Under the pieces are notes generated by a model. It worked only from the letters and a program-made list of their open reading frames with translations, made no database searches and was not told where the DNA came from. A stretch of DNA of 64,000 nt from Intestinibaculum porci. Its GTDB lineage: Bacteria; Bacillota_I; Bacilli_A; Erysipelotrichales; Coprobacillaceae. A program made the position numbers and the translations under genes. The DNA is taken from the NCBI RefSeq assembly GCF_003925875.1, contig NZ_AP019309.1:868001-932000 (forward strand), in the 5' to 3' direction. Shown here piece after piece: positions 49,777 through 64,000 of the stretch; position 1 is the first letter of the stretch, and each line of letters starts with the position of its first letter.

Positions 49777-50469
49777 ATGGAATTTATTTTAGATACAATT
49801 AACTTAGAGGAAATCAGAGATGGCGTTGATCACATGCCAATCGTCGGGATTACCAGCAACCCATCTATCGTGAAAAAAACCAGTCCAAAGGATTTCTTTG
49901 GACATATGCGTCAGGTACGTGAAATCATTGGGATGTCGCGCTGCTTACATGTTCAGATCGTGGCTACCAAAGCGGAAGATATGATCGCTGAAGCGCATAC
50001 CATTTTTAAAGAAATTGATGACCAGGTTTATATTAAAGTGCCTACTTCATATGAAGGTGTGAAGGCGATGAAAGCTTTAAAAGCTGAAGGCGCGAACGTG
50101 ACCGCTACAGCGGTCTATACCACCATGCAGGCTTATATGGCGTTAGAAGCTGGCGCTGATTACTTAGCCCCTTACTTTAACCGTATCGCTAACTTAGGCG
50201 GTGATCCCGTCGCTTTAATTAGCAACGTCGCGAAACGGATTGAAGAAGGACATTATGACTGTAAAATCTTAGCCGCTTCCTTCCATGCTTTATCACAGGT
50301 TGAAGAGGCGTTGAATGCTGGCTCTCAGGCAGTCACTGCTCCTTATGGTATTTTAAAAACTGTTTTCGCCAATCCGAATATCGACAAGGCTGTCAATGAC
50401 TTTAATAGTGACTGGTATGATGTCTATGGTCAGGATACAAGCATCTGCGATTTAGCCAAGGAGCAGTAA
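49777..50469 (+). CDS. fsa: Fructose-6-phosphate aldolase (small transaldolase family)
   Basis: 230 residues, the size of FSA/TalC. The Schiff-base Lys is K87 in VYIKVPTSYEG; NPSIVKK near 28 and APYFNRIANLGGDP near 136 are typical. The enzyme splits fructose-6-phosphate-type ketoses into a C3 donor (dihydroxyacetone or hydroxyacetone) and glyceraldehyde-3-phosphate. It heads an operon with a DeoR regulator and a glycyl radical enzyme, the association seen for talC-pflD and fsaA-ybiW in E. coli. AAGGAGAG precedes the ATG. Confidence 0.9.
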   Translation: MEFILDTINLEEIRDGVDHMPIVGITSNPSIVKKTSPKDFFGHMRQVREIIGMSRCLHVQIVATKAEDMIAEAHTIFKEIDDQVYIKVPTSYEGVKAMKALKAEGANVTATAVYTTMQAYMALEAGADYLAPYFNRIANLGGDPVALISNVAKRIEEGHYDCKILAASFHALSQVEEALNAGSQAVTAPYGILKTVFANPNIDKAVNDFNSDWYDVYGQDTSICDLAKEQ

Positions 50470-51231
50470 ATGTTAGCGGGGGAAAGACACCGTAAGATTG
50501 TCGAACGCGTCAATAGTGAAGGCATAGTGATCGTCAAAGACTTAGCTAAAGCTTATGGTGTGACGGAAGACTGTATTCGTAAAGATCTCAAAATCTTAGA
50601 AAATAAAGGATTATTAACCCGAATCCATGGCGGAGCTACGACCAATCGGGAGAATGTCCATGCTTATCATGCGAAAGATCGTCGTGAAGTGCATGTGGAA
50701 GAAAAGGAGCGCATTGCGGCGAAAGCGATGACGCTCTTACATGACGATCTGATGATCTTTCTCGATATCTCAACGAGTTCCTATGCTATTGCCCAAAGAA
50801 TTGTTCAGCAGCATCTTCGTCTCACCATCGTCACCAATATGGTCGCTATTTTGGAATTGCTCAAGGATGTGCCTTTTGTGACACTCATCTTCATTGGCGG
50901 GATGATCAATCATACCAATGATGGCTTTACCGGGTCATTAACGATTGATACCTTAAAAAAGTATCGCTTTGATCTTGCTTTTGTCGGTGTCGTTGGCGTC
51001 GATATCGCTAATAATCAGGTGATGACTTATGATATGGATGATGGCCTGACGAAAAAACAAATTATGCTTTCATCAGCGGCTTCTTATATGCTTTGTGAAC
51101 ATGAAAAGTTTCACCAGGCTGGGCATTTCATTTATGCGACGATCGATGATTTTACCGGTTTGATTACCGATACATTACTAAGCAGTCAAGTAGAAAAAGC
51201 CCTGATTGCGAAAGATATTGATATTGTGTAA
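50470..51231 (+). CDS. DeoR-family regulator of the aldolase-GRE operon
   Basis: 253 residues. N-terminal helix-turn-helix VKDLAKAYGVTEDCIRKDLKILE near 20-42 followed by RIHGGA, then the DeoRC sensor with DISTSSYA near 99. The start codon directly follows the aldolase stop, with AAGGAG inside the aldolase tail, so the regulator is translated with the genes it probably controls. A sugar phosphate of the pathway is the expected inducer. The sensor reads IGGMINHTNDGFTG, the normal anion-binding loop. Confidence 0.88.
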   Translation: MLAGERHRKIVERVNSEGIVIVKDLAKAYGVTEDCIRKDLKILENKGLLTRIHGGATTNRENVHAYHAKDRREVHVEEKERIAAKAMTLLHDDLMIFLDISTSSYAIAQRIVQQHLRLTIVTNMVAILELLKDVPFVTLIFIGGMINHTNDGFTGSLTIDTLKKYRFDLAFVGVVGVDIANNQVMTYDMDDGLTKKQIMLSSAASYMLCEHEKFHQAGHFIYATIDDFTGLITDTLLSSQVEKALIAKDIDIV

Positions 51232-51244
51232 AGGAGGAAAGATG

Positions 51245-53569
51245 ATGCAGACACCAAGAATTCAGCATTTAAAAGCGCGGATGTTTGAAGAAAAACGTTA
51301 TGCCTCGATTGAACAGGCGCGCATTATTACCAAAGTCTATCAGGCTCATGAAGGTGACTCGATTCCCAAGAAAAGAGCCTTAGCCCTGAAAGCTTCCCTA
51401 GAAAAAATAGAAATTGGTTTTGATCGGGAAGAACTGATCGTCGGCAATCGCACCAAAGGTGTGCGCGCTGGCGTTGTCTTTCCGGAAAGCGGCAGTGCCT
51501 GGGTCAATCGGGAATTTGAAACGCTGCCTAGCCGCCTACAGGATCGTTTTGCCATTCGCGAAGAAGATATCCAGGAATTTCGCGAAAAGATTTATCCTTA
51601 CTGGCGTCATCGCTCTTTAGAAGATGCCATTTATGGCAGATATGGCGATGAGATCGCTTCTATCGCTAAAGTCGTTAAAATCAATCAGAAGGATCATGCC
51701 CAGGGCCATATCTGTCCGGATGTCGCATTGTGGCTTAGTAAGGGACCAGCAGGATTAAAAGAAGAGGCCCAAAAGCATCTTGCCACATGTGATGAAGCAC
51801 ATCGTGAATTTTATGAATGCATGATCATCACTTTAGAAGGAGCGATGACATTCATGCGTCGTTACCATGACATGATCATGGCAAGCAATCCTGATGAAAC
51901 CCTCAAGAAAGTAGCGAACAACTGCTTACACTTATCGCAACGGCCCGCTGAAAGCTTCCATGAAGCCTTACAGTCACTCTGGTTTCTCTTCGTGATTTTA
52001 CAGATGGAATCCAATGCCTCTTCCTTTTCACCAGGGCGTGCAGATCGTTATCTTTATCCTTATTACCAGCATGATCTTAATAAAGGCTTACTCACAAAAG
52101 AGCAGGCTTTGGAACTGATTGAATGTCTCTATCTGAAATTTAATCAGATTGTCTATATGCGTAACCAGAATTCGGCCAAATATTTTGCGGGTTTCCCAAT
52201 TGGCTTTAATATTGCCGTCGGCGGCGTTGATGAAAACGGTCAGGATACCTATAATGCTCTTTCTTTATTATTCTTAGATGCGCAGTATGACTTAGGCTTG
52301 CCGCAGCCTAACTTATCCGTTCGCCTCAATAAACATTCTTCCTCAACGCTCATGCAAAGAGCCATTGAAGTTGTGGCGAAAGGCAGCGGTATGCCGCAGT
52401 TCTTCAATGATGAAGCAGTCATGAAAACAATGGTGGAAGAATTAGGCGTGGATCCCCAGGATGCCTATGATTATGCTATTGCCGGCTGTGTCGAATTAAC
52501 GACCCAGGGCAATAACTTGGGCTGGAGCGATGCGGCGATGTTCAACTTTAATAAAGCCTTAGAATTAACCCTCAATCATGGAATCGATTTATTAACGGGC
52601 GAAAAAATGGGTCCTGATTATGGCGGCTTAGATACATATGCAAGCTATAAAGATTTAGAGCATGCTTTTGCGCAAATGATTGATTACTATATTATCCAAA
52701 TGATGAAAGCCGAAGAAGTCGTCGAAGCCGCCCATCAGAAATATTTACCGACCGCTTTTCTCAGCTGCGTGATCAATGACTGCATGGACAAAGGCATCGA
52801 TGTCACAGCCGGCGGTGCAAAATATAATTTAGCCGGCATCCAGATGATTCAGGTGGCTAACTTAGCAGATAGCTTAGCCGTTTTAAAGGATTTAGTCTAT
52901 GACAAAAAGAAGATTGCTCCTCAAGAGATGTTAACCGCATTACAGGCAAACTTTGAAGGCTACGAGATCATTCATACCATGGTTGAACATAAAGTGCCTA
53001 AATATGGCAATGATGTAGCCTGGGTGGATAACTTAGGGGAACAGTGGTGCCATTATTTTAGAGAAAAACTAAGAGCCTATCGTAATCCGCGTGGCGGTCT
53101 CTATCATACTGGGATGTATACAGTCTCTGCCCATGTCCCAATGGGAGAAAATGTCGGGGCATCCCCTGATGGCCGTAAAGCGCGTGAGCCATTAGCAGAT
53201 GGCGGGTTATCTGCGGTCTATGGCCGTGATTTAAAAGGGCCAACCGCTTTATTAAAATCCGTATCTCGGATGGACAACAATCTGACGACCAATGGCGGGT
53301 TACTTAACATGAAATTTTTACCATCATTTTTTGCAACCCAAGCAGGGCGTGACAATTTTGAACGATTCCTGCGCGTCTTTGTCGACTTAGAGATTCCCCA
53401 TATTCAGTTCAATGTCGTCAATCGCGAAGATCTGCTGGATGCGAAAATCCATCCTGAACGTCATCGTTCCTTAACGATTCGCGTTGCTGGCTACACCGCT
53501 TATTTCGTGGAATTAGCGGGTAAGCTGCAGGATGAAATCATTGCCCGCACAAGTTATGACCACATCTAA
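51245..53569 (+). CDS. Glycyl radical enzyme, GCVE (dehydratase/lyase) class
   Basis: 774 residues. The thiyl-radical Cys is C415 in AIAGCVEL with the acid/base Glu at 417, the pattern of glycyl radical dehydratases and lyases, not the Cys-Cys of pyruvate formate-lyase. The radical Gly is G749 in TIRVAGYTAYFVEL. It belongs near E. coli PflD/YbiW. With a fructose-6-phosphate aldolase and a DeoR regulator in the operon, a sugar-phosphate substrate is likely, for example a 1,5-anhydrohexitol-6-phosphate opened to 1-deoxyfructose-6-phosphate. Of two adjacent ATGs, the one at 51245 is 7 bases from GGAGG. It is anaerobic and oxygen-sensitive by nature. Confidence 0.9.
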   Translation: MQTPRIQHLKARMFEEKRYASIEQARIITKVYQAHEGDSIPKKRALALKASLEKIEIGFDREELIVGNRTKGVRAGVVFPESGSAWVNREFETLPSRLQDRFAIREEDIQEFREKIYPYWRHRSLEDAIYGRYGDEIASIAKVVKINQKDHAQGHICPDVALWLSKGPAGLKEEAQKHLATCDEAHREFYECMIITLEGAMTFMRRYHDMIMASNPDETLKKVANNCLHLSQRPAESFHEALQSLWFLFVILQMESNASSFSPGRADRYLYPYYQHDLNKGLLTKEQALELIECLYLKFNQIVYMRNQNSAKYFAGFPIGFNIAVGGVDENGQDTYNALSLLFLDAQYDLGLPQPNLSVRLNKHSSSTLMQRAIEVVAKGSGMPQFFNDEAVMKTMVEELGVDPQDAYDYAIAGCVELTTQGNNLGWSDAAMFNFNKALELTLNHGIDLLTGEKMGPDYGGLDTYASYKDLEHAFAQMIDYYIIQMMKAEEVVEAAHQKYLPTAFLSCVINDCMDKGIDVTAGGAKYNLAGIQMIQVANLADSLAVLKDLVYDKKKIAPQEMLTALQANFEGYEIIHTMVEHKVPKYGNDVAWVDNLGEQWCHYFREKLRAYRNPRGGLYHTGMYTVSAHVPMGENVGASPDGRKAREPLADGGLSAVYGRDLKGPTALLKSVSRMDNNLTTNGGLLNMKFLPSFFATQAGRDNFERFLRVFVDLEIPHIQFNVVNREDLLDAKIHPERHRSLTIRVAGYTAYFVELAGKLQDEIIARTSYDHI

Positions 53570-54437
53570 AGCTTTAGTCTTTGATATTAAGCGTTTCGCC
53601 ATCCACGATGGCGAAGGGCTGCGGACCACCATCTTTTTAAAAGGCTGCCCGCTGCGCTGTCGCTGGTGTCAAAATCCGGAAGGACTCGACGTGCAAAGAG
53701 CGCCGATGTACATGTCTTCCCGCTGTATTCACTGTCAGCTTTGCGCCCGTTTTATTCAGTATCAGGATCGGCCTCTTCTAGAAGAAGGGGAGGCGATGGA
53801 TCTGGCAATTGCTGATTGCCCAGCTGAAGCGCTCCGTTATGATAGCACCTATTATAGTGTTGAAGAACTGATTGAAAAAATCAAAGAGGATGCCCCTTTT
53901 TATAAGTATGGGGGCGGGGTGACGTTTTCTGGCGGGGAACCGTTATTGCAGTGGCGGGTTTTAGTCTCCTTGTTAAAAGAATGTCAGAAAGCGGGCATTC
54001 ATACCGCCATCGAAAGCAGTCTCTATAGCACGCATCTGCAGGATGTCATGCCACACTTAGACTTTATCTATTGTGATCTTAAGCTTTATGACGCGCAAAA
54101 ACATCTGCAAGCTACTGGCGTTGATCATGCGCTCATCTTAGAAAACATCAAAACGTTACTTCATTCCCCCATGCGTGAACGTATGATTGTGCGCACGCCA
54201 TTAATACCTGGCTATACCGCTACAGATGAGAATATTGCGGCGATCGCTCAGTTTCTCGTTAATGAATATCCTGATGTCACTTATGAACTTCTCAATTATA
54301 ACCCTTTAGCGAGCGCAAAATATGAATGGACATCTTTCACTTATGGCTTAGATCCAAAGACCAAAGCTTTGAATCAGGAAGAAATGGAACATTTTCGTCT
54401 TATTGCCCGTAAACAAGGCCTCAAAAATGTTTTATAA
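53556..54437 (+). CDS. Glycyl radical enzyme activase (radical SAM)
   Basis: 293 residues. The radical-SAM cluster motif is CPLRCRWC near 30-37, preceded by the activase hallmark FDIKRFAIHDGEGLRT. A ferredoxin-like insert follows with CIHCQLC near 55-61 and DCP near 86, enough for a single extra 4Fe-4S cluster, while most activases of dehydratase-type enzymes carry eight Cys for two. The SAM-binding GGGVTFSGGEPLLQ is intact. The gene overlaps the enzyme gene; an in-frame ATG at 53532 is also possible. It abstracts H from G749 of the partner. Confidence 0.92.
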   Translation: MTTSKALVFDIKRFAIHDGEGLRTTIFLKGCPLRCRWCQNPEGLDVQRAPMYMSSRCIHCQLCARFIQYQDRPLLEEGEAMDLAIADCPAEALRYDSTYYSVEELIEKIKEDAPFYKYGGGVTFSGGEPLLQWRVLVSLLKECQKAGIHTAIESSLYSTHLQDVMPHLDFIYCDLKLYDAQKHLQATGVDHALILENIKTLLHSPMRERMIVRTPLIPGYTATDENIAAIAQFLVNEYPDVTYELLNYNPLASAKYEWTSFTYGLDPKTKALNQEEMEHFRLIARKQGLKNVL

Positions 54438-54457
54438 TGAGGAGCGAGGTGAGAAAA

Positions 54458-54883
54458 ATGAAAATGCCGCCAAGAGAAAAAATTCCCGAAGCCTATAGCG
54501 CGATCATCGATGGTCGCGTAGAGATGCATGAAAATCATGCGTTAGTCACATCAAGTGATCACCAGAAAGTGTATTTAGTGCGCTGGCAGGGAAATACTTA
54601 TAATGCCAATGATAATGCGACTTACTGGCAGGGGTATCCTGGTTATCCAGTGATTGCCGTCCTCCTGATGCAGGGCAAACTGCCCTATAACGAAGATGTT
54701 GCAAGATACTTTCAGGGCGTCAACTGGCATCGTCTCAATAAGAAAAAGAAACGTGACTATGCCGCCGCGTTAGCGGACGTCTTATTAGACGTTGCGCATC
54801 CTGAGGGCATCTATGAAGAGATAGATAAGGTGTATACCCATTTATCATTATTAGATTTAACGCTAACCCGGAAAAAGTTATAA
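54458..54883 (+). CDS. Small protein at the end of the GRE operon, function unknown
   Basis: 141 residues, rich in Tyr, Trp and Asn, without signal peptide or membrane helix. It starts 20 bases after the activase stop, with GAGGTG 6 bases before ATG 54458 (an ATG at 54437 is in frame but has no site). The body reads YLVRWQGNTYNANDNATYW and GYPVIAVLLMQGKLPYNEDV. I do not recognise a family. Operon position suggests a link to the pathway, but it may be a neighbour by chance. Confidence 0.65.
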   Translation: MKMPPREKIPEAYSAIIDGRVEMHENHALVTSSDHQKVYLVRWQGNTYNANDNATYWQGYPGYPVIAVLLMQGKLPYNEDVARYFQGVNWHRLNKKKKRDYAAALADVLLDVAHPEGIYEEIDKVYTHLSLLDLTLTRKKL

Positions 54884-54889
54884 TCATTG

Positions 54890-54919
54890 AGAGCTTTCGT
54901 GTTTTAGAAAGCTCTTTTT
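54890..54919 (+). terminator. Terminator of the aldolase-GRE operon
   Basis: AGAGCTTTC/GAAAGCTCT stem followed by TTTTT. Confidence 0.9.
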
Positions 54920-54923
54920 GTAT

Positions 54924-54955
54924 AAAAAAGATCAGATCCTATAAATGATCTGATC
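54924..54955 (-). terminator. Terminator of glnS
   Basis: GATCAGATC/GATCTGATC stem; on the minus strand it is followed by a six-T run. Confidence 0.88.
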
Positions 54956-54965
54956 TCACAATATT

Positions 54966-56633
54966 TTATTTCTTTGGTAATTTGAAAGAACTCTTCATAG
55001 AGGCAATTCTATTGAAAATAGGTGTATCTTCAGTAGAGTCTTTTGGATCAATATTGAAGAAACCTTTGCGGACAAACTGGAAGGCATCACCCGGTTTGTA
55101 GTCTTTGATGTTTTCTTCAATATAGGCATTGTCAATGACCGTTAAGGAATTTGGATTAATATTGACACTGCCGTCTTCGTTATAAACACCTTTTTCTTCA
55201 TCTACTAACTGTTCATATAAACGCACAGTCACCTTCTTAGAATGATGGGCTGCCACCCAGTGGATCGTCCCTTTGACCTTGCGGGCATTAAAGCCACTGC
55301 CGCTCTTGGTTTCTGGATCATAAGTCCCATGAATAACGGTAACATTACCATTTTCATCGGTTTCATAACCTGTACAAGTAACGAAGTAAGCATTCATTAA
55401 ACGGACTTCATTACCGACAAAGAAACGATAGTACTTCTTTGGTGGGTTCACCATGAAGTCATCTCTTTCGATATAGAGTTCTTTTTCGAAAGGAATCTTA
55501 CGTGATCCTAAGGCTTCATTTTCCACGTTATTAGGTGCATCTAAGTATTCGACCTGTCCTTCAGGATAGTTATCAATGACTAATTTAATGGGATCTAAGA
55601 CTGCCATTAAACGCGGTGCTTTTGGTTTTAAGTCATCTCGAATGCAGTATTCCAGCATCGCATAATCAGCTGAAGACTGTGATTTTGTCACACTGGTCAT
55701 ATCCATGAACATCTTTAAAGATTCTGGTGTGAAACCACGACGACGTAGCGCCGCAATAGTGACTAAACGTGGATCATCCCAGCCATCCACGATGCGCTCT
55801 TCAACGAGTTTCTTAATATAACGTTTACCAGTTACAACGTTGGTCAGATAAAGTTTTGAGAACTCAATCTGTTTTGGTGGGTTAGGGAATTCAGTTTCCG
55901 TAACGACCCAGTTATATAATGGACGATGATCTTCAAATTCCAGTGTACAAATCGAATGTGTGACACCTTCAATTGCATCTTCAATCGGATGCGCAAAGTC
56001 GTACATTGGGTAAATACACCATTTGTCACCCGTATTATGATGAGTGACATGCGCGACACGATAGATGATTGGATCACGCATATTAATATTTGGTGAAGCC
56101 ATATCAATTTTTGCACGTAAAACTTTTTCCCCATCTTTGAACTCATCATTTTTCATCCGTTCAAATAAGTCTAAGTTTTCTTCGATGCTGCGATCACGAT
56201 ATGGTGAATTCTTACCAGGTTCCGTTAATGTGCCGCGGTATTCACGAATTTCATCAGCTGTTAAATCATCCACATAAGCTTTGCCTTTTTTGATTAACTT
56301 AACGGCTAATTCATACATCTGATCAAAATAGTTAGAAGCATACCGGACGCCGCCGACATATTTAGCACCTAACCATTCGACATCTTTAATGATGGATTCC
56401 ACATATTCTGTATTTTCTTTTTTTGCATTTGTATCATCAAAACGTAAGTGGAAGTCTCCGCCGTATTCTTTTGCCAGCCCGTAGTTCAACAGGATACTCT
56501 TGGCATGACCAATATGGAGATAGCCATTTGGTTCCGGCGGGAATCTTGTCACGACTTTCTTATAAGTACCATTGGCAAGGTCTTCGTCGATGATCTTTTC
56601 AATAAAATTTTTACTTTTAACTTCAGTATCCAT
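54966..56633 (-). CDS. glnS: Glutaminyl-tRNA synthetase
   Basis: 555 residues, the length of the bacterial enzyme. The class I motif HIGH is seen in [13 protein letters not shown] near 33-45 and the GlnRS-specific RFDDTN segment near 63. The KMSKS loop reads [11 protein letters not shown] in the place of E. coli VMSKRKLN. The C-terminal beta-barrel anticodon-binding domain follows. A direct GlnRS is not universal in Firmicutes, many of which charge tRNA-Gln through GatCAB. The gene is single, ended by a strong hairpin. Confidence 0.95.
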
Positions 56634-56734
56634 TTTATATTTCCCCCTATCAATAATATACGATTTATTTTACCAAATTCTCGACCCTACGTCTATAAAT
56701 ATTGGGTGAACTCAAGGCAAATGAGATTATTCAC

Positions 56735-56763
56735 TTGCGCTAGGCTATGAGTTATGATAAAAT
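56735..56763 (+). promoter_or_regulatory. Promoter of the fluoride exporter
   Basis: TTGCGC (56735-56740), a 17-base spacer and TAAAAT (56758-56763) with a TGn extension. It places the transcript start just before the riboswitch. Confidence 0.65.
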
Positions 56764-56770
56764 GCGAACA

Positions 56771-56829
56771 ACGGGAATGAAGTTTCCCTGGCGTATGCCG
56801 AACTGCTAGTGAGCTAATGACTTCTATTT
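56771..56829 (+). promoter_or_regulatory. Fluoride riboswitch (crcB motif) aptamer
   Basis: The parts of the fluoride aptamer occur in order: GGGAATGAAGTTTCCC (P1 with the AUGA core), CCGAACTGC after it, then GCTAATGACTTCTA, which matches the consensus GCUGAUGACUUCUA-like 3' strand. AAGT pairs with ACTT and GGG with CCC as in the known structure. The gene behind it is a CLC-type transporter, the second most common class under this riboswitch after crcB. Assignment is by eye from the consensus. Confidence 0.88.
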
Positions 56830-56853
56830 TAAGGGAGTCATTAGCATTTTTTT
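56813..56853 (+). terminator. Riboswitch-controlled terminator
   Basis: GCTAATGACT pairs perfectly with AGTCATTAGC, followed by a seven-T run. Its 5' arm is the 3' strand of the aptamer, so fluoride binding and termination exclude each other: the gene should be ON with fluoride. Confidence 0.88.
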
Positions 56854-56872
56854 CGTTTAAGGGGGAAATATG

Positions 56873-58093
56873 ATGAAAAAATTAGGAGCAGAATATCGCT
56901 CATTAATAATCCTTTCAGGAGTAGCGATCATTATGGGGATCTTAGTAGGGGCAATGGATGCTTTATTCGCATCTGTTTTATTACTTGTCTCCCATCTTCG
57001 TGATCAATACTTGTATTTTGTCTTACCAGGGTTACCGTTTATTGGCATGTTCATTGTCTGGTACTACACCAATTTTGGAAAAGAAAGCATTCAGGGGATG
57101 AGTCTGATTTTTGAAACCGGCCATGGAATGCGTGAAGCTTTGCCTCTGCGGATGATTCCGATGGTCATGGTGGGCACGTGGTTATCCCATCTCTTTGGTG
57201 CGAGTGTCGGCCGTGAAGGCGTCGCCGTGCAAATTGGCGGCACCTTATCTTATGAACTAGGGAAACGTTTGCCGTTAAAAGAAAACAAACGCATCTTTTT
57301 AATGATGGGAATGGCTGCCGGTTTTGGCGGCGTCTTTCGGACACCCTTTGCCGGCACTTTATTTGCCTTAGAAGTCTTAGCGCCAGGAACCATCGCTTAT
57401 GAAGCGCTATTGCCAAGTTTAGTAGCTGCTTTATGTGCTAGTGCTACGTCTGGTATATTAGGTTTAAAAGGTTTTACCTACGCTTTAAAAGGAAGTGTTT
57501 CTTTAGACCTCAATACCTTGATCACCTTAGTGATCGCGGGCATTCTCTTTGGCCTGATTGGCGCGCTTTTCGCTTATGGGGAAAAACAGGCCAAAGGTTT
57601 CTTTCAAAGGAAGATCGAAAATCCTTACAAGCGGATTGCTTTTTTAGGCGTCATTATTATGGCTTTTATGTATTTGACCAATGGCCGTTACAGCGGCCTG
57701 GGTTCGAATCTGATTACGATGAGTTTTGATGGCCATACCATCTATGTCTGGGATTTTATCGTTAAGTTAGCGTTAACGCTTTTATCGTTAGCGGCGGGCT
57801 ATCAGGGCGGGGAAGTGACACCATTATTTTCTATTGGGGCCACGGCTGGCTTTGTCTTATCACTCTTTTTACCCATGCCGGCTGTCTTATTATCAGCGTT
57901 AGGCTACGCGGCGGTCTTTGGCGGGGCGACCAATACGCTATTAGCGCCGATTCTCATTGGCGGGGAAGTCTTTGGTTTTAGCCATTTGCCTTATTTCCTG
58001 ATTGTCTGCGTCCTTGCTTTTGTCGTGAACCATAACTTATCCATTTATACCAAACAAAAAACACGATCAGTGCTTGACGAACCGTGTGCATAA
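56873..58093 (+). CDS. CLC-type fluoride/proton antiporter
   Basis: 406 residues with about ten to twelve membrane helices. CLC motifs are GASVGREGVAVQIGG near 104, GGVFRTPFAGTLFALE near 140 and YQGGEVTPLFSIGA near 307. The selectivity region lacks the GSGIP of chloride-type CLCs, and the riboswitch marks it as a CLC-F that expels fluoride from the cytoplasm. Of the two ATGs at 56870 and 56873 the second is 7 bases from GGGGG. Its last 27 bases overlap the convergent VanZ-like gene. Confidence 0.9.
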   Translation: MKKLGAEYRSLIILSGVAIIMGILVGAMDALFASVLLLVSHLRDQYLYFVLPGLPFIGMFIVWYYTNFGKESIQGMSLIFETGHGMREALPLRMIPMVMVGTWLSHLFGASVGREGVAVQIGGTLSYELGKRLPLKENKRIFLMMGMAAGFGGVFRTPFAGTLFALEVLAPGTIAYEALLPSLVAALCASATSGILGLKGFTYALKGSVSLDLNTLITLVIAGILFGLIGALFAYGEKQAKGFFQRKIENPYKRIAFLGVIIMAFMYLTNGRYSGLGSNLITMSFDGHTIYVWDFIVKLALTLLSLAAGYQGGEVTPLFSIGATAGFVLSLFLPMPAVLLSALGYAAVFGGATNTLLAPILIGGEVFGFSHLPYFLIVCVLAFVVNHNLSIYTKQKTRSVLDEPCA

Positions 58094-58525
58094 GACACCG
58101 ATGGCGGTGCCTAAGGTATTGGCAATTAAGTCATCCATTTGGCCATAGCCAAGGGAGAAAACAACCTGGGTGATTTCAATGCCTAAAGAAACAAGGAAGC
58201 CGATGAATATAATTTCACGGCTTTTTCTTTTGGTTAATAGAGCAAGAAAGAAACCTAAAGGTATGAATAAAGCCATATTCTCAAAGTAATAAATGAGGTT
58301 ATCGGGGAGGACAGATAATGTTGAAAATGGCATCAGATCAATCTGGATCGGCCGAGGCGTGCGCGAAAAGATGGTGATATAGCTTAAGACAAACAAGTAG
58401 AAGTAGAAAAGAAAGAAACGAATGGTTTTCTTCCTAGTGATAAAAGAGATGATTAAGGCAAAAAGCAGACCGAAGGGGACTGCTTTTTGTAAAATAGGTA
58501 ACGTTAACTGTAAGATGCGAATCAT
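58067..58525 (-). CDS. VanZ-like membrane protein
   Basis: 152 residues with four or five membrane helices. NMALFIPLGFFLALL near 83 and SLGIEITQVVFSLGYGQMDDLIANTLGTAIG near 113-143 are the two conserved parts of VanZ-family proteins, which include a teicoplanin resistance factor and many without known role. Its ATG overlaps the stop of the adenosine-deaminase-like gene (ATGA), so it is made together with that protein. The end overlaps the fluoride exporter gene by 27 bases, tail to tail. Confidence 0.85.
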   Translation of the reverse strand: MIRILQLTLPILQKAVPFGLLFALIISFITRKKTIRFFLFYFYLFVLSYITIFSRTPRPIQIDLMPFSTLSVLPDNLIYYFENMALFIPLGFFLALLTKRKSREIIFIGFLVSLGIEITQVVFSLGYGQMDDLIANTLGTAIGVLCTRFVKH

Positions 58526-61026
58526 GAGTGATGATGTTTCCTTTTCTGCTCTTCGGGATGAGAAAGGGCGCGATAATAGGTGTTGGCATAGTGCAGCATC
58601 GAATCGGCATGATCCCCATCATAAAAGAACGTAATATAACCTTGCAAAGATTTTGCTTTATCTTTAAGAATACGACAGTGATAATCGATAAAGGTACGGG
58701 ATTTATAGGATGAGTTTTTCGCATCCTGAATTAAGTTCGAAGCGGCGCTGTTGCCATCAAAGGCAATAATAATCGACTGGCGACGCTTAAAGATTTCATA
58801 GGTGAAACTTTTATAGACCCCTAATGGTGAACTTTCAATGGAGACGCGCATCTTCACATTTTGATGTTTGAGTTTCTGCGCTTCACTCGCTGTTAATAAA
58901 CTTGGCACAAAGCAGAAGATATCAAAACCTTGGGCATGTTCTAACACGTATTTTTCATAGCCCGTAAGCTTCGGGCCGATGACGAAGAAGACTTTACTTG
59001 GATCTGCCCGTTTGATCAGATCATCAAGTAAGGCTGTTTCGGGAGCGCGTAAGCGGGTGTTGTGAGTAATGTTGTTAAAAGAGCCGCCAACAACAATAAG
59101 GGGAATCTTATGCGTTGGCAGGGGCGTAATCTGGTCCTTGAAAAGTGTATAAGGATCGAGATGACGTTTCGAGACGCTTAAAGGAATATCCTTTGCGGAT
59201 AAGGCTATTTGCTTATTGTAGTAATCAGCGATGGCGATATCTTTTGGCATCGCCGCCATTTTCTCTTCAAAGGCATTGAGTGAATAAGCAATGATCTGAT
59301 CTTCGACCTGGCGCATCTTTAACTGATCGTCAAAGGTGAGGTCTAACATCCGCTCTAAAGAGAGCTGTTCATCGATTGAATTGGTGCCATATAAGGCGCC
59401 GCCATCGGTGCCTTGAACGCAGGCAATGCCTTCATTTAAATACTGTTTTAAAGGATGGTACTTCAGATTGCTGAGGTTATTTAAACGGACATTGGACGTG
59501 ATCTGAAATTCCAGGATGACATGATGCGCTTTGATCTTTTCTAGAAGCTTTTGCCCTTTCTGGGTTTTGAGGGAAGGGGTATAAAGACCATGACCAATGC
59601 GCATATGCGGGAATGTGTCACCTTCCGCTAAAGCATCTTCAACGCATTCGATGCTGTTTAAGACATTATCAGGCAATGAATCGTTTTCCCCGGCATGAAT
59701 CCGGATGACAAAGGAAGGAATATCTTTGGTGAGTTTGACAACCGCTTTAATGACATCCTTTAATTCTTTGATATCATTAAGCTCTTCACCGACAAAATCA
59801 CATCCAGCTACATAAGGATCTTTCGCAATCGCATTTAAGACATTGAGGTTTTCTAAGAAGTAGTTATCATGATCGACAGCATCTTTCACAATCGTTAAGG
59901 GAATGCGGCGCATCGCCGCTAAAAAGCGTAAAGTGACACCGGTTTCCTGAGTGATCGCGGGCATGACTTCATGAATATCCTGCAACACCTGAGCCGCCTC
60001 ACTTTTCTTGACTAAAGCCGTATCCGAGATTTCTGCGTAAGTGACCCCCACCGCCTGATAGCTGCGGGCCACCCATAAAAGCTCATTCTGATAAAGATTC
60101 ATATGAGCATAATAGGGATTATGGCTATCTTTCAATATTTGTGCTAAAGCTTTGACGATATCCTGATCAGGAATGTTGCGGTAGTCCTGCAGTTTACGAT
60201 AGTCGTCAATCAAATACTTTTTCTCACTGACAATGCCTTTCGTAAAGACGTAGCGATAAAGGTACACTTTTTCTAAGTTGGTAAAGACAGCCTGCCCATC
60301 TTTCATGACCGCTAAAGATGTACGAATTTTCGCGATGTTCTCGGCGGCATCGTCTAAGTTACCAAGAATCAGCTCAGCAAAGTTAATAAAGGTATGATCA
60401 TCGATGCGGCGATCTAAGTATTTTCCGGTTAATGGGGAATCACGATAGTCTTTCGCAACCTTTTGACGATCCATTTCTAACTGTCTCTTTTGGCTTGCAG
60501 ATAATGACAAATTGAGCTTTTTAATATAATAATAGGGATAGCGAATCTGATGGAAAATGCCTAAGGCAATAAGTAAATCTGGGGATAAATTCGCATTACG
60601 ATGGGTGTGGAGATCAGAATGGAACTTCACTTCTTCACGGATATACGTTTTGACTAAAGTTTTGAATTCATCTAAATCATAGTCTTTGGTCTGACTCATT
60701 AGCGTTTTCGCGATGGCTGGAATCGAGGCTTTCTGATCGATTTGCCCATCGGGATAAATATTCGCGACTTTGGTATTGCCTAAACGAAAGATATACACCT
60801 GCTGATTATGACCATCAATATAGCAGGGAATCTGTCCTTCAATCATCTTATAGCCATTTTTTTCATACGTAATGGGTAAGTGGCAAAGATGCGCTAAATT
60901 GGTGATCAGATTTCCTGTCGTATGGTGCGGGGTTCGTAAGACGTACCTGAGTGTTTTTCCTTCTTTATACAAAGTGATAATGATATCTTTTTCTGAATCA
61001 AGATAGAATTGTCCAAAATAGTCCAT
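58522..61026 (-). CDS. Large adenosine-deaminase-like protein with C-terminal Rossmann-like domain
   Basis: 834 residues, more than twice a normal adenosine deaminase. Order: an unrecognised N-terminal domain (1-130), an amidohydrolase barrel of the ADA type (about 133-600, with a helical insert near 150-300), and a C-terminal alpha/beta domain (about 640-800; PLIVVGGSF, IFCFVPSL, IIIAFDGNSAAS) that recalls SLOG/DprA-type nucleotide-binding folds. Metal ligands are present: H140 and H142 (DLHTH), H444 and acid E447 (IHAGE), H479 (GHG), D541. The second Asp of the ADA DD pair is G542. AAAGGAG precedes the ATG. Substrate unknown; a purine nucleotide or derivative is the natural guess. Confidence 0.75.
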   Translation of the reverse strand: MDYFGQFYLDSEKDIIITLYKEGKTLRYVLRTPHHTTGNLITNLAHLCHLPITYEKNGYKMIEGQIPCYIDGHNQQVYIFRLGNTKVANIYPDGQIDQKASIPAIAKTLMSQTKDYDLDEFKTLVKTYIREEVKFHSDLHTHRNANLSPDLLIALGIFHQIRYPYYYIKKLNLSLSASQKRQLEMDRQKVAKDYRDSPLTGKYLDRRIDDHTFINFAELILGNLDDAAENIAKIRTSLAVMKDGQAVFTNLEKVYLYRYVFTKGIVSEKKYLIDDYRKLQDYRNIPDQDIVKALAQILKDSHNPYYAHMNLYQNELLWVARSYQAVGVTYAEISDTALVKKSEAAQVLQDIHEVMPAITQETGVTLRFLAAMRRIPLTIVKDAVDHDNYFLENLNVLNAIAKDPYVAGCDFVGEELNDIKELKDVIKAVVKLTKDIPSFVIRIHAGENDSLPDNVLNSIECVEDALAEGDTFPHMRIGHGLYTPSLKTQKGQKLLEKIKAHHVILEFQITSNVRLNNLSNLKYHPLKQYLNEGIACVQGTDGGALYGTNSIDEQLSLERMLDLTFDDQLKMRQVEDQIIAYSLNAFEEKMAAMPKDIAIADYYNKQIALSAKDIPLSVSKRHLDPYTLFKDQITPLPTHKIPLIVVGGSFNNITHNTRLRAPETALLDDLIKRADPSKVFFVIGPKLTGYEKYVLEHAQGFDIFCFVPSLLTASEAQKLKHQNVKMRVSIESSPLGVYKSFTYEIFKRRQSIIIAFDGNSAASNLIQDAKNSSYKSRTFIDYHCRILKDKAKSLQGYITFFYDGDHADSMLHYANTYYRALSHPEEQKRKHHHS

Positions 61027-61048
61027 AAGCTGTGCTCCTTTTGGGAGG

Positions 61049-61057
61049 ATTATAGCA
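61049..61057 (-). promoter_or_regulatory. Extended -10 promoter inside the upstream gene's end
   Basis: On the minus strand TGCTATAAT (TGn plus perfect TATAAT) lies 23 bases before the adenosine-deaminase-like gene and overlaps the stop codon of the hydrolase gene. It may give the downstream two genes their own transcript. Confidence 0.5.
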
Positions 61058-62036
61058 TATTTAAGCGTTCACTCCTAGTGCTTCCCTTGATCGTGCTTTC
61101 AATCTGTTCGAAAGCCTCTTTCGCTTCGGGAATCGGTAAGAACGGATAGTTATGAATGAGATGATGACCAGTGATCAGTCTGGCATTTACATGGGCAGCT
61201 TTAAGCTTGCGATAGAAGCGGACAATATCTGGATAAAGCAGTTCATTGGTGCCGCCAAAGAGAGTCACATCACTTAAGCAGGTGTAATTGCCAAAGTAAG
61301 GAGATACCTTATAGGCATACAGCGACTTTGTACCTGCCCACATCGTACCTAAACGTTTAATGCCATAGGAAGAGAGCAGCGGATCAATTTTTTCTAGTTG
61401 ACCGCCATCACGACTCATCGTGAGATCTAACCATGGCGAAATAAGAATCAATCGATCAGGCTGCAGATCAGAGCCTAACGATTCGCAAAAACCAGTCGCT
61501 AAAGCGCCGCCGGCACCTGCACCAATGATCGTTAAAGGAAGAGTGCGATCGATCGAAGCGTAGAGTTTTTCTAATAAATCATAGGCTTCTTCATGGGTGG
61601 CGGTGGGGACTAACGGATACATGGGAACATAGACGCAGGCATCGAGATCTTTCGCTAAACGATCGACAAAACGCCATTCATAAAAGGAGATCGGCTGGAT
61701 AAAACCACCGCTATGTAAATAGATAATGTGGTATTTTGGGTGTTTCGATGCCCGTACGACAAATAACTGCTGACTGGCAAAAGTCGTTTCATCGACATGG
61801 GAAAGCATATAGTGAGAAAGTTTATATTTCTTTTTATTTTCGATGGACTGTTCATAAAGAAAGCGCTCAAACGCTTCAGGATGAGTGTATGCATCTTTCT
61901 TGCTCGTGATTTTAATGACTTCTTCGACGGCTTTTGAAGTCATCGTATGGTGAAAACATTTTTTATATAAATAACGGATTCCTCTCAGTGTCAGCAGGGA
62001 TGCTGTCATTAAGGATACGAATTGTACTTTTTTCAT
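61050..62036 (-). CDS. Alpha/beta-hydrolase of the HSL/acetyl-hydrolase family, nucleophile missing
   Basis: 328 residues with an N-terminal membrane anchor (about 1-22). The oxyanion motif HGGG appears as HSGGF near 107. The nucleophile elbow, GDSAGG in the family, reads GAGAGG near 173, so Ser is Gly and the preceding Asp is Ala. The acid position GxxD reads GGTNELLYPD; the terminal His is kept in HNYPF. It is predicted inactive as an esterase. It precedes the adenosine-deaminase-like gene by 23 bases on the same strand. An in-frame GTG lies at 62045; AAAGGG fits ATG 62036. Confidence 0.8.
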   Translation of the reverse strand: MKKVQFVSLMTASLLTLRGIRYLYKKCFHHTMTSKAVEEVIKITSKKDAYTHPEAFERFLYEQSIENKKKYKLSHYMLSHVDETTFASQQLFVVRASKHPKYHIIYLHSGGFIQPISFYEWRFVDRLAKDLDACVYVPMYPLVPTATHEEAYDLLEKLYASIDRTLPLTIIGAGAGGALATGFCESLGSDLQPDRLILISPWLDLTMSRDGGQLEKIDPLLSSYGIKRLGTMWAGTKSLYAYKVSPYFGNYTCLSDVTLFGGTNELLYPDIVRFYRKLKAAHVNARLITGHHLIHNYPFLPIPEAKEAFEQIESTIKGSTRSERLNML

Positions 62037-62149
62037 AAAAAACACGCCCTTTCTTTTAAGCCTTGCTTAAATTGCCTCATAGTTTAGCACGCTCTTTACA
62101 AAAGTCAAATTCACATTTGTCACAAAATGGAAAAACAGTTTACAAAACA

Positions 62150-62193
62150 GGCGGTCTAACGCTCGTGACTTCAGTCATGAGATAAAGACCGCC
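62150..62193 (-). repeat. Right-end double hairpin of the IscB element
   Basis: The 9-bp inner hairpin CTCGTGACT/AGTCATGAG is enclosed by a perfect 8-bp outer stem GGCGGTCT/AGACCGCC. It begins 10 bases after the iscB stop codon and may also work as a terminator or stabilise the transcript. Confidence 0.8.
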
Positions 62194-62202
62194 GATAGCA
62201 TC

Positions 62203-63684
62203 CTAGACATATACCAGTCCGGCATTTTCTCTGATGATCGTGCATTTGGCAGCAGGAAAATTTCTTTTCTCGCATCCGACAGCGCGGTAATAGCGACCGC
62301 CGGTAAGCTGACTCTGCAGCACATATCGCTCGCCATCAAAAAGAAATACAGCACCCGGCATGAGCCTGTCTGCATCGTTATAATAGCGCGTTGATTTTGT
62401 CACCGTCAGCCGCGAAACCTGATCAGGGTATTTCTGTCTGAACTCCTCAAGTGAATCGCCTTTCTGTTCAAATCGCTTATGCCTGTTCCGGCAGACAATT
62501 CTTCCATCAAGACGATACGTCCTTTCACGCTGATTGTTTATGTTTGCCCTGCTGTGTCGGCAAAACTGCACGATTTCAAATGTGCGGGGGAGTCTTCGGA
62601 CAGGTGTAATGCCTGATCCGATGCATGCGATGCAGAGTGCATCGATGTCATGATCCTTTGGAAGTCCTAAATCATCTCTCAACGTCTGTGTTTCCACGCC
62701 AGTGCAGAAATGCGCATGATCTTCCCCGTATGTCTCTGTCATCCATTGCCAGATATATGGAATAGCCTGATTCAGAACGGAAAGTGAGCCGTATTTCTTC
62801 ATGACGCCTTTCATGTCAGATCTTAGCTCTCCTTTATGTATTCGCGCATGGCATTTCATGCAGACGCCGAGAATATTTTCCGGCAGGTCGCTTCCGCCCC
62901 GAGAGCGAGGGATGATGTGATGATAGTGTTCTATCGGAGCACCGCACATTGGGCATACGCCATTCTGTCTTATGTATACGTACTCATGCGAGTTTTTATA
63001 GCCTTTCATGCGTCCGTTCTGGAAGTCAGTGCCGTAGCACTTTCCGTTATCCATCTGCATGAAGGCAAACTTATTGGCTTCAATCGTCCAGTCAGTCACG
63101 GGAAGAATAGCACTTATACGGCAAATCAGATTTTCGTGTGTCTGCACAAGCTGATTCGCAGTTGGCGTAAGCCATTTCTCGGGGCGTTTCCTGTAGCTGA
63201 ACTTAGCCGTCGTATTGACAATATCCTTCACCATAACAGGTTTCTTATATCCGGGCAGCATTCGCCCGTCTGGAAATTCTGTCGTCGTTCCGTTTGCTTT
63301 GGCACGGCGTTTTCTTCTCAGGCGTTCGCCTCTTCGGCTTGCCTGACGATGCGATTTTCTCGCTTCCATGTTCTTCGGTACGTCTCTGTTTCTGGATGCG
63401 GTATGTGATCTGTACACGCATTTCCCTTCAGGCGTCACAACTGCAGCGCCTATGTTTGTACGACCCGGATCAATGCCACCGAAAAGCGGCTGCGTGTTCT
63501 TGGATCCGTCGTACTTCAGCTGAATGACGAAAGGGACATGCGATACAATTCTCGCCTTTCCCTTATTGAGAAGACGCTTCACATGTCCGCGTCTTCTGGT
63601 AGGCATCAGCGGATCTCCGTCCGCAGACAGAACATAAATATAATCTGTTTCAGACAGTTCCTGCTCAAGTTTTGTCTTAGGCAT
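62203..63684 (-). CDS. iscB: IscB RNA-guided nuclease (OMEGA system)
   Basis: 493 residues. The order is the full IscB architecture: PLMP domain (GDPLMPTRRRGHVKRLLNKG, 23-42), RuvC-I with D72 (GGIDPGRTNIG), Arg-rich bridge helix (about 108-130), RuvC-II with E202 (TIEANKF), HNH domain with zinc Cys 244/247 and 275/278 and catalytic His (YHHIIPRSRGG, 254-264), RuvC-III with D348 (DHDIDAL) and a C-terminal domain that should bind the TAM. All catalytic residues are intact. The frame extends to 63759, but GGGGGG is 9 bases before ATG 63684. Confidence 0.93.
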   Translation of the reverse strand: MPKTKLEQELSETDYIYVLSADGDPLMPTRRRGHVKRLLNKGKARIVSHVPFVIQLKYDGSKNTQPLFGGIDPGRTNIGAAVVTPEGKCVYRSHTASRNRDVPKNMEARKSHRQASRRGERLRRKRRAKANGTTTEFPDGRMLPGYKKPVMVKDIVNTTAKFSYRKRPEKWLTPTANQLVQTHENLICRISAILPVTDWTIEANKFAFMQMDNGKCYGTDFQNGRMKGYKNSHEYVYIRQNGVCPMCGAPIEHYHHIIPRSRGGSDLPENILGVCMKCHARIHKGELRSDMKGVMKKYGSLSVLNQAIPYIWQWMTETYGEDHAHFCTGVETQTLRDDLGLPKDHDIDALCIACIGSGITPVRRLPRTFEIVQFCRHSRANINNQRERTYRLDGRIVCRNRHKRFEQKGDSLEEFRQKYPDQVSRLTVTKSTRYYNDADRLMPGAVFLFDGERYVLQSQLTGGRYYRAVGCEKRNFPAAKCTIIRENAGLVYV

Positions 63685-63921
63685 ATCATGATGCCCCCCT
63701 TCATAAGATTCCGGTGCCGTCGCCTGTAAGGCACTAACATCCGGCAATAATGTTTCCATAGTCTGGGTGCGTCTTTAGGGTTCGGGAGCCTTGGAATCAG
63801 CCCCGGTCCTTGCATCTCCGGAGGAATGCGACGCATCCATATGACTCTGCTCAATTAATCATTTCCATCATCGCTCACTCTTTCAAGCTCGCGACTTTAG
63901 TCGTGAGAAATCGACTCGAAA
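63685..63921 (-). ncRNA. Probable omega-RNA region of the IscB element
   Basis: IscB omega-RNAs are encoded just upstream of the iscB start and run from the left element end into the gene. This 237-base noncoding stretch has the right place and length, holds the left-end hairpin, further GC-rich stems (GGATGCGTCGCATTCC, GGAGATGC...) and a GGGGGG segment directly before the start codon. The exact ends and fold are not derived here. Confidence 0.65.
63888..63907 (-). repeat. Left-end hairpin of the IscB element
   Basis: CTCGCGACT-TT-AGTCGTGAG with one G-T pair; 9 bp. It differs from the right-end hairpin at only three bases. Confidence 0.8.
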
Positions 63922-63931
63922 GTAAACTGCT

Positions 63932-64000
63932 TTAATAAATAGAACCTTTTAATTCGTCTTCATTGGCATTATCCATGCGACTGTTTTTTAAGTTTGTCAG
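63932..64000 (-). CDS. C-terminal end of a gene leaving the window
   Basis: On the minus strand the last 22 codons of a frame are seen, reading LTNLKNSRMDNANEDELKGS then IY and TAA. The polar, acidic composition suits a protein C-terminus. The IscB element begins 10 bases after this stop codon. The family cannot be named from so little. Confidence 0.4.
   Translation of the reverse strand: MTNLKNSRMDNANEDELKGSIY

What the first reader, a model, noticed from the sequence alone, without database searches (positions are those of the whole stretch)
58067..62036. Three-gene operon: inactive-looking hydrolase, giant adenosine-deaminase-like protein, VanZ-like membrane protein
The three genes lie on one strand with a 23-base gap and a 4-base overlap. 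The 834-residue middle protein joins an unknown N-terminal domain, an ADA-type barrel and a Rossmann-like C-terminal domain that recalls SLOG nucleotide sensors. A large deaminase coupled to a membrane protein and a nucleotide-binding domain resembles the logic of nucleotide-based phage defence (RADAR has a large deaminase, RdrB, with optional membrane partners), though no RdrA-like ATPase is present. An IscB element adjoins it. It may be an uncharacterised nucleotide-metabolism or defence unit.
Basis: partly seen in the sequence, partly recalled or inferred. Interest (0 to 1): 0.75.

Follow-up and report, generated by a model that had tools for sequence, protein, structure and literature searches.

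The report
Adenosine deaminase fused to nucleotide-sensing domain
A gut bacterium carries a large, widely shared but unstudied protein that joins an adenosine-deaminase-type enzyme to a SLOG-type nucleotide-binding domain, which suggests a deaminase switched by a small-molecule signal; the two neighbouring genes appear to be local neighbours, not partners.

Summary
The 834-residue protein is a three-domain fusion: a conserved N-terminal domain (1-125, no family match), a complete ADA barrel (about 126-589), and a C-terminal domain (632-803) that, folded alone (pLDDT 93), matches only SLOG-superfamily structures in the best 50 (Moco carrier, DprA, TRPM, PpnN, LOG). Metal and catalytic residues are invariant in 60 homologues. 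The two adenosine-recognising aspartates of canonical ADA are replaced (Asp19 by Asn144/Ser, Asp296 by Gly542); the CRISPR effector Cad1, which deaminates ATP, has lost the same two. The gene is patchy in rumen/gut Bacillota, has moved between classes, and has no conserved neighbour. The hydrolase (nucleophile lost) and VanZ accompany it only in the window's genus; IscB is absent from the congener's locus. It is not RdrB, not a type III CRISPR effector, and was not found in phages or plasmids. Best reading: a self-contained, SLOG-gated deaminase of a phosphorylated adenine nucleotide, more likely for nucleotide control than phage defence, though defence is not excluded. No paper found describes an ADA-SLOG fusion, but a key SLOG survey was not in the library. 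New variant of a known kind.

The parts
58522..61026 (-). 834-aa ADA-SLOG fusion protein (the core of the finding)
60652..61026 (-). N-terminal domain, residues 1-125, mostly beta, conserved, no family match
   Evidence: mean majority identity 0.80 in 60 homologues; no Pfam match alone; predicted secondary structure
59260..60651 (-). ADA barrel, residues about 126-589, with a helical insertion (about 165-300); metal/catalytic residues H140, H142, H444, E447, H479, D541
   Evidence: VIA Z 25.2 to P. vivax ADA over 314 residues; residues invariant in 60 of 60; aligned with canonical ADAs
58618..59133 (-). C-terminal SLOG-superfamily (Rossmann-like) domain, residues 632-803
   Evidence: model pLDDT 93; the top 50 VIA rows are SLOG-superfamily structures, Z 10.9-13.1
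61050..62036 (-). Upstream alpha/beta hydrolase with a lost nucleophile (GAGAG); genus-level neighbour
58067..58525 (-). Downstream VanZ-like membrane protein, 4-base overlap; genus-level neighbour
61035..61038 (-). Ribosome-binding site GGAG of the ADA-SLOG gene in the 23-base gap
   Evidence: direct reading

Best explanation
The 834-residue protein works alone as a ligand-gated nucleotide deaminase. The ADA barrel binds a metal ion and hydrolytically deaminates an adenine nucleotide, most likely a 5'-phosphorylated one (ATP, AMP or a relative) and not free adenosine. The C-terminal SLOG domain, which lacks the catalytic motif of LOG nucleosidases, binds a nucleotide-derived ligand and turns the barrel on or off, as CARF does in Cad1. 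Its role is more likely control of the adenylate/inosinate pool under some signal than dedicated phage defence. The hydrolase and VanZ are not needed. Shown: the gene, its conservation and domain composition (by prediction), retained catalytic residues, loss of both adenosine-recognition aspartates, patchy distribution and transfer between classes, no fixed partner. Inferred: phosphorylated substrate, ligand binding, allosteric gating, physiological role.
For: ADA fold Z 25.2 with H140, H142, H444, E447, H479, D541 invariant. Asp19 replaced by Asn144 (56 of 60; Ser in 4) and Asp296 by Gly542 (60 of 60); these residues bind adenosine in mouse ADA, and ATP-specific TaqCad1 has replaced the same two (PMC12669630). 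C-terminal fold is SLOG; a distant 783-aa homologue aligns with it (hhalign E 4e-5) and has a sub-threshold LSDAT_prok/SLOG match (E 0.0011). No PGGxGTxxE motif in 60 sequences, hence sensor rather than LOG enzyme. The three domains stay together in the 60 aligned homologues. No conserved neighbour across about 70 loci. Strong conservation, 49-75% identity.
Against: No biochemical evidence of activity, substrate or ligand. Asp296 to Gly differs from Cad1's Asn, and loss of Asp296 greatly weakens mouse ADA, so catalysis could be weak or aimed at another base. The domain-level call is from predicted structures; sequence HMMs do not see SLOG in the window protein itself. Patchy presence (7 of 395 genomes of the window's class at the cut-off, 6 of them full-length; 21 of 100 in one rumen family) is unusual for housekeeping control.
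Confidence: 0.45

Rival explanations
1. Anti-phage effector: infection produces a nucleotide signal (for example an ADP-ribose derivative or alarmone) that binds SLOG and triggers massive ATP-to-ITP deamination and growth arrest, as in Cad1 or RADAR.
For: Sensor-plus-deaminase architecture parallels CARF-ADA Cad1; both adenosine-recognising Asp are lost as in Cad1; patchy, transferred between Erysipelotrichales and Oribacterium (100% SH-aLRT); PADLOC's best match is CARF_ADA, on the barrel only; a TIR protein lies beside one copy and a Card1-like nuclease two genes from another; TIR_2 genes in 11 of 20 carrier vs 8 of 32 non-carrier genomes of one family.
Against: Immediate neighbours are mostly ordinary metabolic genes, no defence island and no signal-making partner; the window genome has no TIR_2 match and no Cas10 above cut-off; none in phage, plasmid or viral collections; the proteins are well conserved, whereas RADAR proteins diverge strongly (PMC9994260). 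The TIR excess (p 0.04) is uncorrected for relatedness and genome size.
Confidence: 0.25
2. Unregulated salvage enzyme: an AMP- or N6-substituted-AMP-type deaminase whose extra domains only build the oligomer; it replaces the missing canonical adenosine deaminase.
For: In 8 of 9 carrier genomes searched it is the only PF00962 protein; Oribacterium copies follow a YfbR 5'-nucleotidase gene; strong conservation.
Against: SLOG domain is strongly conserved with invariant loop residues, more than a spacer needs; Asp296 is Gly; how common canonical ADA is in related genomes without the fusion was not counted, so replacement is not shown.
Confidence: 0.17
3. Bifunctional enzyme: ADA deaminates AMP to IMP and a LOG-like C-terminal domain cleaves the product to hypoxanthine and ribose 5-phosphate.
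For: The C-terminal fold includes LOG and PpnN among its matches.
Against: The LOG motif PGGxGTxxE is absent from all 60.
Confidence: 0.05
4. Three-gene unit: pseudo-hydrolase, deaminase and VanZ act together, with VanZ as membrane partner.
For: Tight packing with a 4-base overlap; same order in the congener L014.
Against: The trio is absent at the homologues outside the genus; the hydrolase has no close homologue in other relatives.
Confidence: 0.05

Closest known systems
Cad1 / CAAD (CARF-adenosine deaminase, type III CRISPR effector)
   Same: ADA barrel joined to a Rossmann-type nucleotide-sensing domain in one chain; zinc-site residues kept; Asp19 and Asp296 of canonical ADA both replaced; best PADLOC match; fold Z 20.8-22.6
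   Different: Sensor is SLOG at the C-terminus, not CARF at the N-terminus; extra N-terminal domain and helical insertion; 834 not about 600 aa; Gly (not Asn) at 296; no type III CRISPR association
RdrB of RADAR
   Same: Large ADA with N-terminal extension and an insertion dividing the catalytic core; HxH, H, E, H active-site order
   Different: No match to RdrB models; fold Z 20.6 (rank 49); no insertion 3; has a SLOG domain; no RdrA seen beside it
Canonical adenosine deaminase (Add, ADA1) and ADAL/MAPDA
   Same: Barrel, metal ligands and catalytic Glu/His; closest folds (Z about 23-25)
   Different: Asp19 and Asp296 of canonical ADA replaced; two extra domains; more than twice the length
SLOG superfamily: Moco carrier protein, DprA, TRPM N-terminal domain, PpnN, LOG, ThsA C-terminal domain
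   Same: Fold of the C-terminal domain (Z 10.9-13.1 for those listed; ThsA was not among the rows)
   Different: Not detectable by sequence HMM in the window protein; lacks the LOG catalytic motif; effector attached is ADA, not SIR2 or a channel

Membership tests
Adenosine deaminase superfamily (PF00962) | Profile match above curated cut-off | tested here: met
   51.7 vs 27 bits; all 60 homologues match
Adenosine deaminase superfamily (PF00962) | Metal ligands HxH, H, D and catalytic Glu, His | tested here: met
   Invariant in 60 of 60, aligned with canonical ADAs
Adenosine deaminase proper (TIGR01430 equivalog) | Equivalog score cut-off | tested here: not met
   41.6 vs 216.55 bits
Adenosine deaminase proper (TIGR01430 equivalog) | Asp19 and Asp296 (adenosine recognition) | tested here: not met
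   Asn144/Ser and Gly542
RADAR RdrB | Match to RdrB profile NF041744 (cut-off 800 bits) | tested here: not met
   No match at E up to 1 in the NCBIfam scan; none in the genome (none of its control genomes rang either)
RADAR RdrB | Insertion 3 after the last catalytic His | tested here: not met
   Only about 62 residues from H479 to D541, little more than canonical ADAs
RADAR RdrB | RdrA ATPase partner | tested here: inconclusive
   No conserved partner of any kind next to the copies; RdrA not searched genome-wide
RADAR RdrB | Fold of RdrB | tested here: inconclusive
   8hr7_B Z 20.6, rmsd 4.7, 353 aligned, below plain ADA; the barrel alone could explain it
Cad1 (CARF-ADA) | N-terminal CARF domain | tested here: not met
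   Profile match covers the barrel only; N-terminus has no Pfam match and is mostly beta
Cad1 (CARF-ADA) | Association with type III CRISPR | tested here: not met
   Cas10 above cut-off in 2 of 31 carrier genomes, not in the window genome
SLOG superfamily (C-terminal domain) | Rossmann-like SLOG fold | tested here: met
   All 50 listed VIA rows are SLOG-superfamily chains, Z 10.9-13.1
SLOG superfamily (C-terminal domain) | Sequence-profile match | tested here: inconclusive
   None for the window protein; sub-threshold LSDAT_prok match in distant homologue L108
LOG phosphoribohydrolase | PGGxGTxxE motif | tested here: not met
   0 of 60
Ligand-gated nucleotide deaminase | Ligand binding and regulated deamination | not testable with these tools
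   Needs biochemistry
VanZ glycopeptide-resistance protein | NCBIfam exception-model cut-off | tested here: not met
   32-43 bits vs 250-375; only the broad PF04892 is met
Alpha/beta hydrolase (HSL type) | Nucleophile serine GxSxG | tested here: not met
   GAGAG in window and congener

The most novel reading that the evidence does not exclude
A new single-protein immune or stress effector class: a nucleotide second messenger binds the SLOG domain and switches on ATP-to-ITP (or related) deamination, giving a CRISPR-independent counterpart of Cad1 that is widespread in gut and rumen Bacillota.
Probability: 0.22. Interest if true: 0.8.

Novelty: new variant of a known kind. Interest (0 to 1): 0.52.

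Why it matters
Two recently described antiviral enzymes (RdrB, Cad1) act by deaminating ATP. A third large ADA lineage, fused to a SLOG domain of the kind that senses signalling nucleotides in ThsA and TRPM channels, suggests that sensor-gated nucleotide deamination is more general. It is one gene, present in many rumen and gut bacteria, and can be tested directly by expression, nucleotide assays and phage challenge in laboratory strains.

Tried and rejected
RADAR membership: no RdrB profile match. Cad1 membership: no CARF, no type III link. Operon as unit: trio only in the genus. LOG enzyme activity of the C-terminal domain: motif missing; hhalign of the domain against the genome's own LOG gave nothing (E 0.13), so the SLOG call rests on structure and on the distant homologue. 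Thoeris-like TIR partner: window genome has no TIR_2; the carrier/non-carrier difference is weak and confounded. Mobile origin: no phage, plasmid or viral-contig relative. IscB as part: the element is absent from the congener's locus. Thirteen loci that first seemed to lack the ADA frame were an ORF-calling artefact of high G+C. Sequence search of the PDB with the C-terminal profile alone found nothing. Searches were input errors of mine. ThsA and other SLOG chains not listed by VIA are not excluded.

Full report
WHAT IS THERE. The three frames lie on the minus strand exactly as described: hydrolase 61050-62036 (or 62045 from a GTG), 834-aa protein 58522-61026, VanZ-like protein 58067-58525, with a 23-base gap and a 4-base overlap. 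The gap carries GGAG at 61035-61038 ahead of the ADA start. The window lies in a 3.2-Mb single-contig genome whose nearest relative with the gene is an uncultured Erysipelotrichaceae bacterium, RUG246.

DOMAINS. Sequence profiles see only the second half of the ADA barrel (PF00962, residues 322-564, E 9e-14). The full-length AlphaFold2 model from 60 homologues (pLDDT 85.5) shows a mostly beta N-terminal domain (1-125), an ADA barrel and a C-terminal alpha/beta domain. The barrel matches P. vivax ADA with Z 25.2 over 314 residues; Cad1 structures give 20.8-22.6 and RdrB (8hr7_B) 20.6 with rmsd 4.7. The C-terminal domain folded alone reaches pLDDT 93. Foldseek's best probabilities are DprA, TRPM4 and the Moco carrier protein, though with E-values only of 2e-3 or weaker; all 50 VIA rows, Z 10.9-13.1, are members of the SLOG superfamily (Moco carrier, DprA, TRPM2/3/4/5/8, PpnN, LOG, YgdH). 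A distant 783-aa homologue, L108, has the same ADA plus C-terminal layout, aligns to the window's C-terminal profile (E 4e-5), and its C-terminus has a sub-threshold LSDAT_prok (SLOG in TRPM, prokaryote) match, E 0.0011.

ACTIVE SITE. H140, H142, H444, E447, H479 and D541 are invariant in 60 of 60 sequences and line up with canonical ADAs from related genomes. Two substitutions are fixed: the position of mouse Asp19 is Asn (56) or Ser (4), and the position of Asp296 is Gly (60 of 60). In mouse ADA, Asp19 bonds the ribose hydroxyls and Asp296 is needed for substrate binding and catalysis; TaqCad1, which deaminates ATP but hardly adenosine, has Gly and Asn there (PMC12669630). From this I infer a substrate other than free adenosine, probably a 5'-phosphorylated adenine nucleotide. 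This is inference, not demonstration. The SLOG domain lacks the PGGxGTxxE motif of LOG enzymes in all 60 sequences but has invariant loop residues (S649, G684, E691, E731, Y738, K739, S740, G758, N764, Q767, N771), as expected of a binding rather than a LOG-type catalytic site.

DISTRIBUTION. One scan of genome contigs returned 66 loci, nearly all from rumen or gut Erysipelotrichaceae, Lachnospiraceae, Oscillospiraceae and unnamed Clostridia. In random draws: 7 of 395 genomes of the window's class had a match at the cut-off, 6 of them full-length; 10 of 291 in the class of a clostridial carrier, of which 7 are full-length members and 1 the distant form; 21 of 100 in one rumen family, one of these a contig-end fragment. 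No full-length relative appears among 72,556 plasmids or 50,697 phages, and none in viral contigs. A quick maximum-likelihood tree groups the window and congener with Sharpea and with three Oribacterium (Lachnospiraceae) at 100% SH-aLRT, within a set mixing classes, so the gene has crossed class borders (the careful search did not finish and the outgroup branch is very long). Clostridial copies reach 58-67% G+C, far from the window gene, so residence in each lineage is mostly old.

NEIGHBOURHOOD. Across about 70 loci no neighbour is conserved beyond genus-like groups. The trio hydrolase-ADA-VanZ is found in the window and in the congener RUG246 (L014), in both near the 555-aa glutaminyl-tRNA-synthetase-like gene (glnS; named by eye). 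The hydrolase has a 55%-identical counterpart only in the congener; other relatives give 24-27%. Five Oribacterium-type genomes share a YfbR 5'-nucleotidase gene upstream. Of 89 near neighbours scanned with PADLOC, hits were few and mostly generic (E1-E2 type, mads_3), with one Card1-like CARF nuclease (L068). One copy (L045) lies beside a TIR/beta-propeller protein. IscB is not at the congener's locus, so its adjacency is most simply a later insertion in the window's lineage.

FUNCTION. Best explanation: a self-contained nucleotide deaminase gated by a ligand bound to SLOG. It works like Cad1 in layout (sensor plus deaminase) but is not Cad1: no CARF, sensor on the other end, and Cas10 above cut-off in only 2 of 31 carrier genomes. 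It resembles RdrB in having an N-terminal extension and an insertion in the core (RdrB insertions: PMC9994260) but is not RdrB: no profile match, no insertion 3, no RdrA seen next to it. Defence is kept as the main rival (0.25). For it: architecture, patchiness, gene transfer, and a weak excess of TIR_2 genes in carriers (11 of 20 vs 8 of 32, Fisher p 0.04, uncorrected). Against it: ordinary neighbours, absence from mobile elements searched, strong conservation, and no TIR_2 match or above-cut-off Cas10 in the window genome itself. In 8 of 9 carrier genomes it is the only PF00962 protein, which fits a metabolic role but is also expected if canonical ADA is simply rare in these groups.

NOVELTY. 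ADA fused to CARF is known; ADA joined to SLOG was not found in the papers searched. The 2015 SLOG survey by Burroughs and colleagues is not in the library, so prior mention cannot be excluded. I rate it a new variant of a known kind.

Noticed in passing
window 56764-56833 (+) and 56870-58093 (+): A fluoride riboswitch (RF01734) precedes a 407-aa ClC-family gene, consistent with a fluoride exporter; its 3' end overlaps the VanZ 3' end by 27 bases, and the gene is missing between VanZ and glnS in the congener L014.
   Followed up: partly
window 62203-63759 (-): IscB RNA-guided nuclease gene 157 bases upstream of the hydrolase; absent from the congener's locus. No Rfam match at gathering threshold in 50000-64000 other than the riboswitch.
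   Followed up: partly
window 61050-62036 (-) and L014 6910-7905: An alpha/beta-hydrolase homologue that has lost its nucleophile serine (GAGAG) is kept in both species of the genus, so a non-catalytic role may be under selection.
   Followed up: partly
L108 8226-10577: Distant 783-aa ADA-SLOG homologue with a shorter N-terminus and TDGK in place of TDGG: evidence of a wider, older family.
   Followed up: partly
L139 (window genome C1 near 2116770): The genome's LOG protein appears fused to an N-terminal DUF1810-like domain (by eye).
   Followed up: no
L068 11634-12803; L045 4842-7823: A Card1-like CARF nuclease lies two genes from one ADA-SLOG copy, and a TIR/beta-propeller protein lies beside another; single cases each.
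   Followed up: partly
L019 8001-10505: ADA-SLOG gene split by an apparent frameshift near residue 176-194: a decaying copy or a sequencing error.
   Followed up: no
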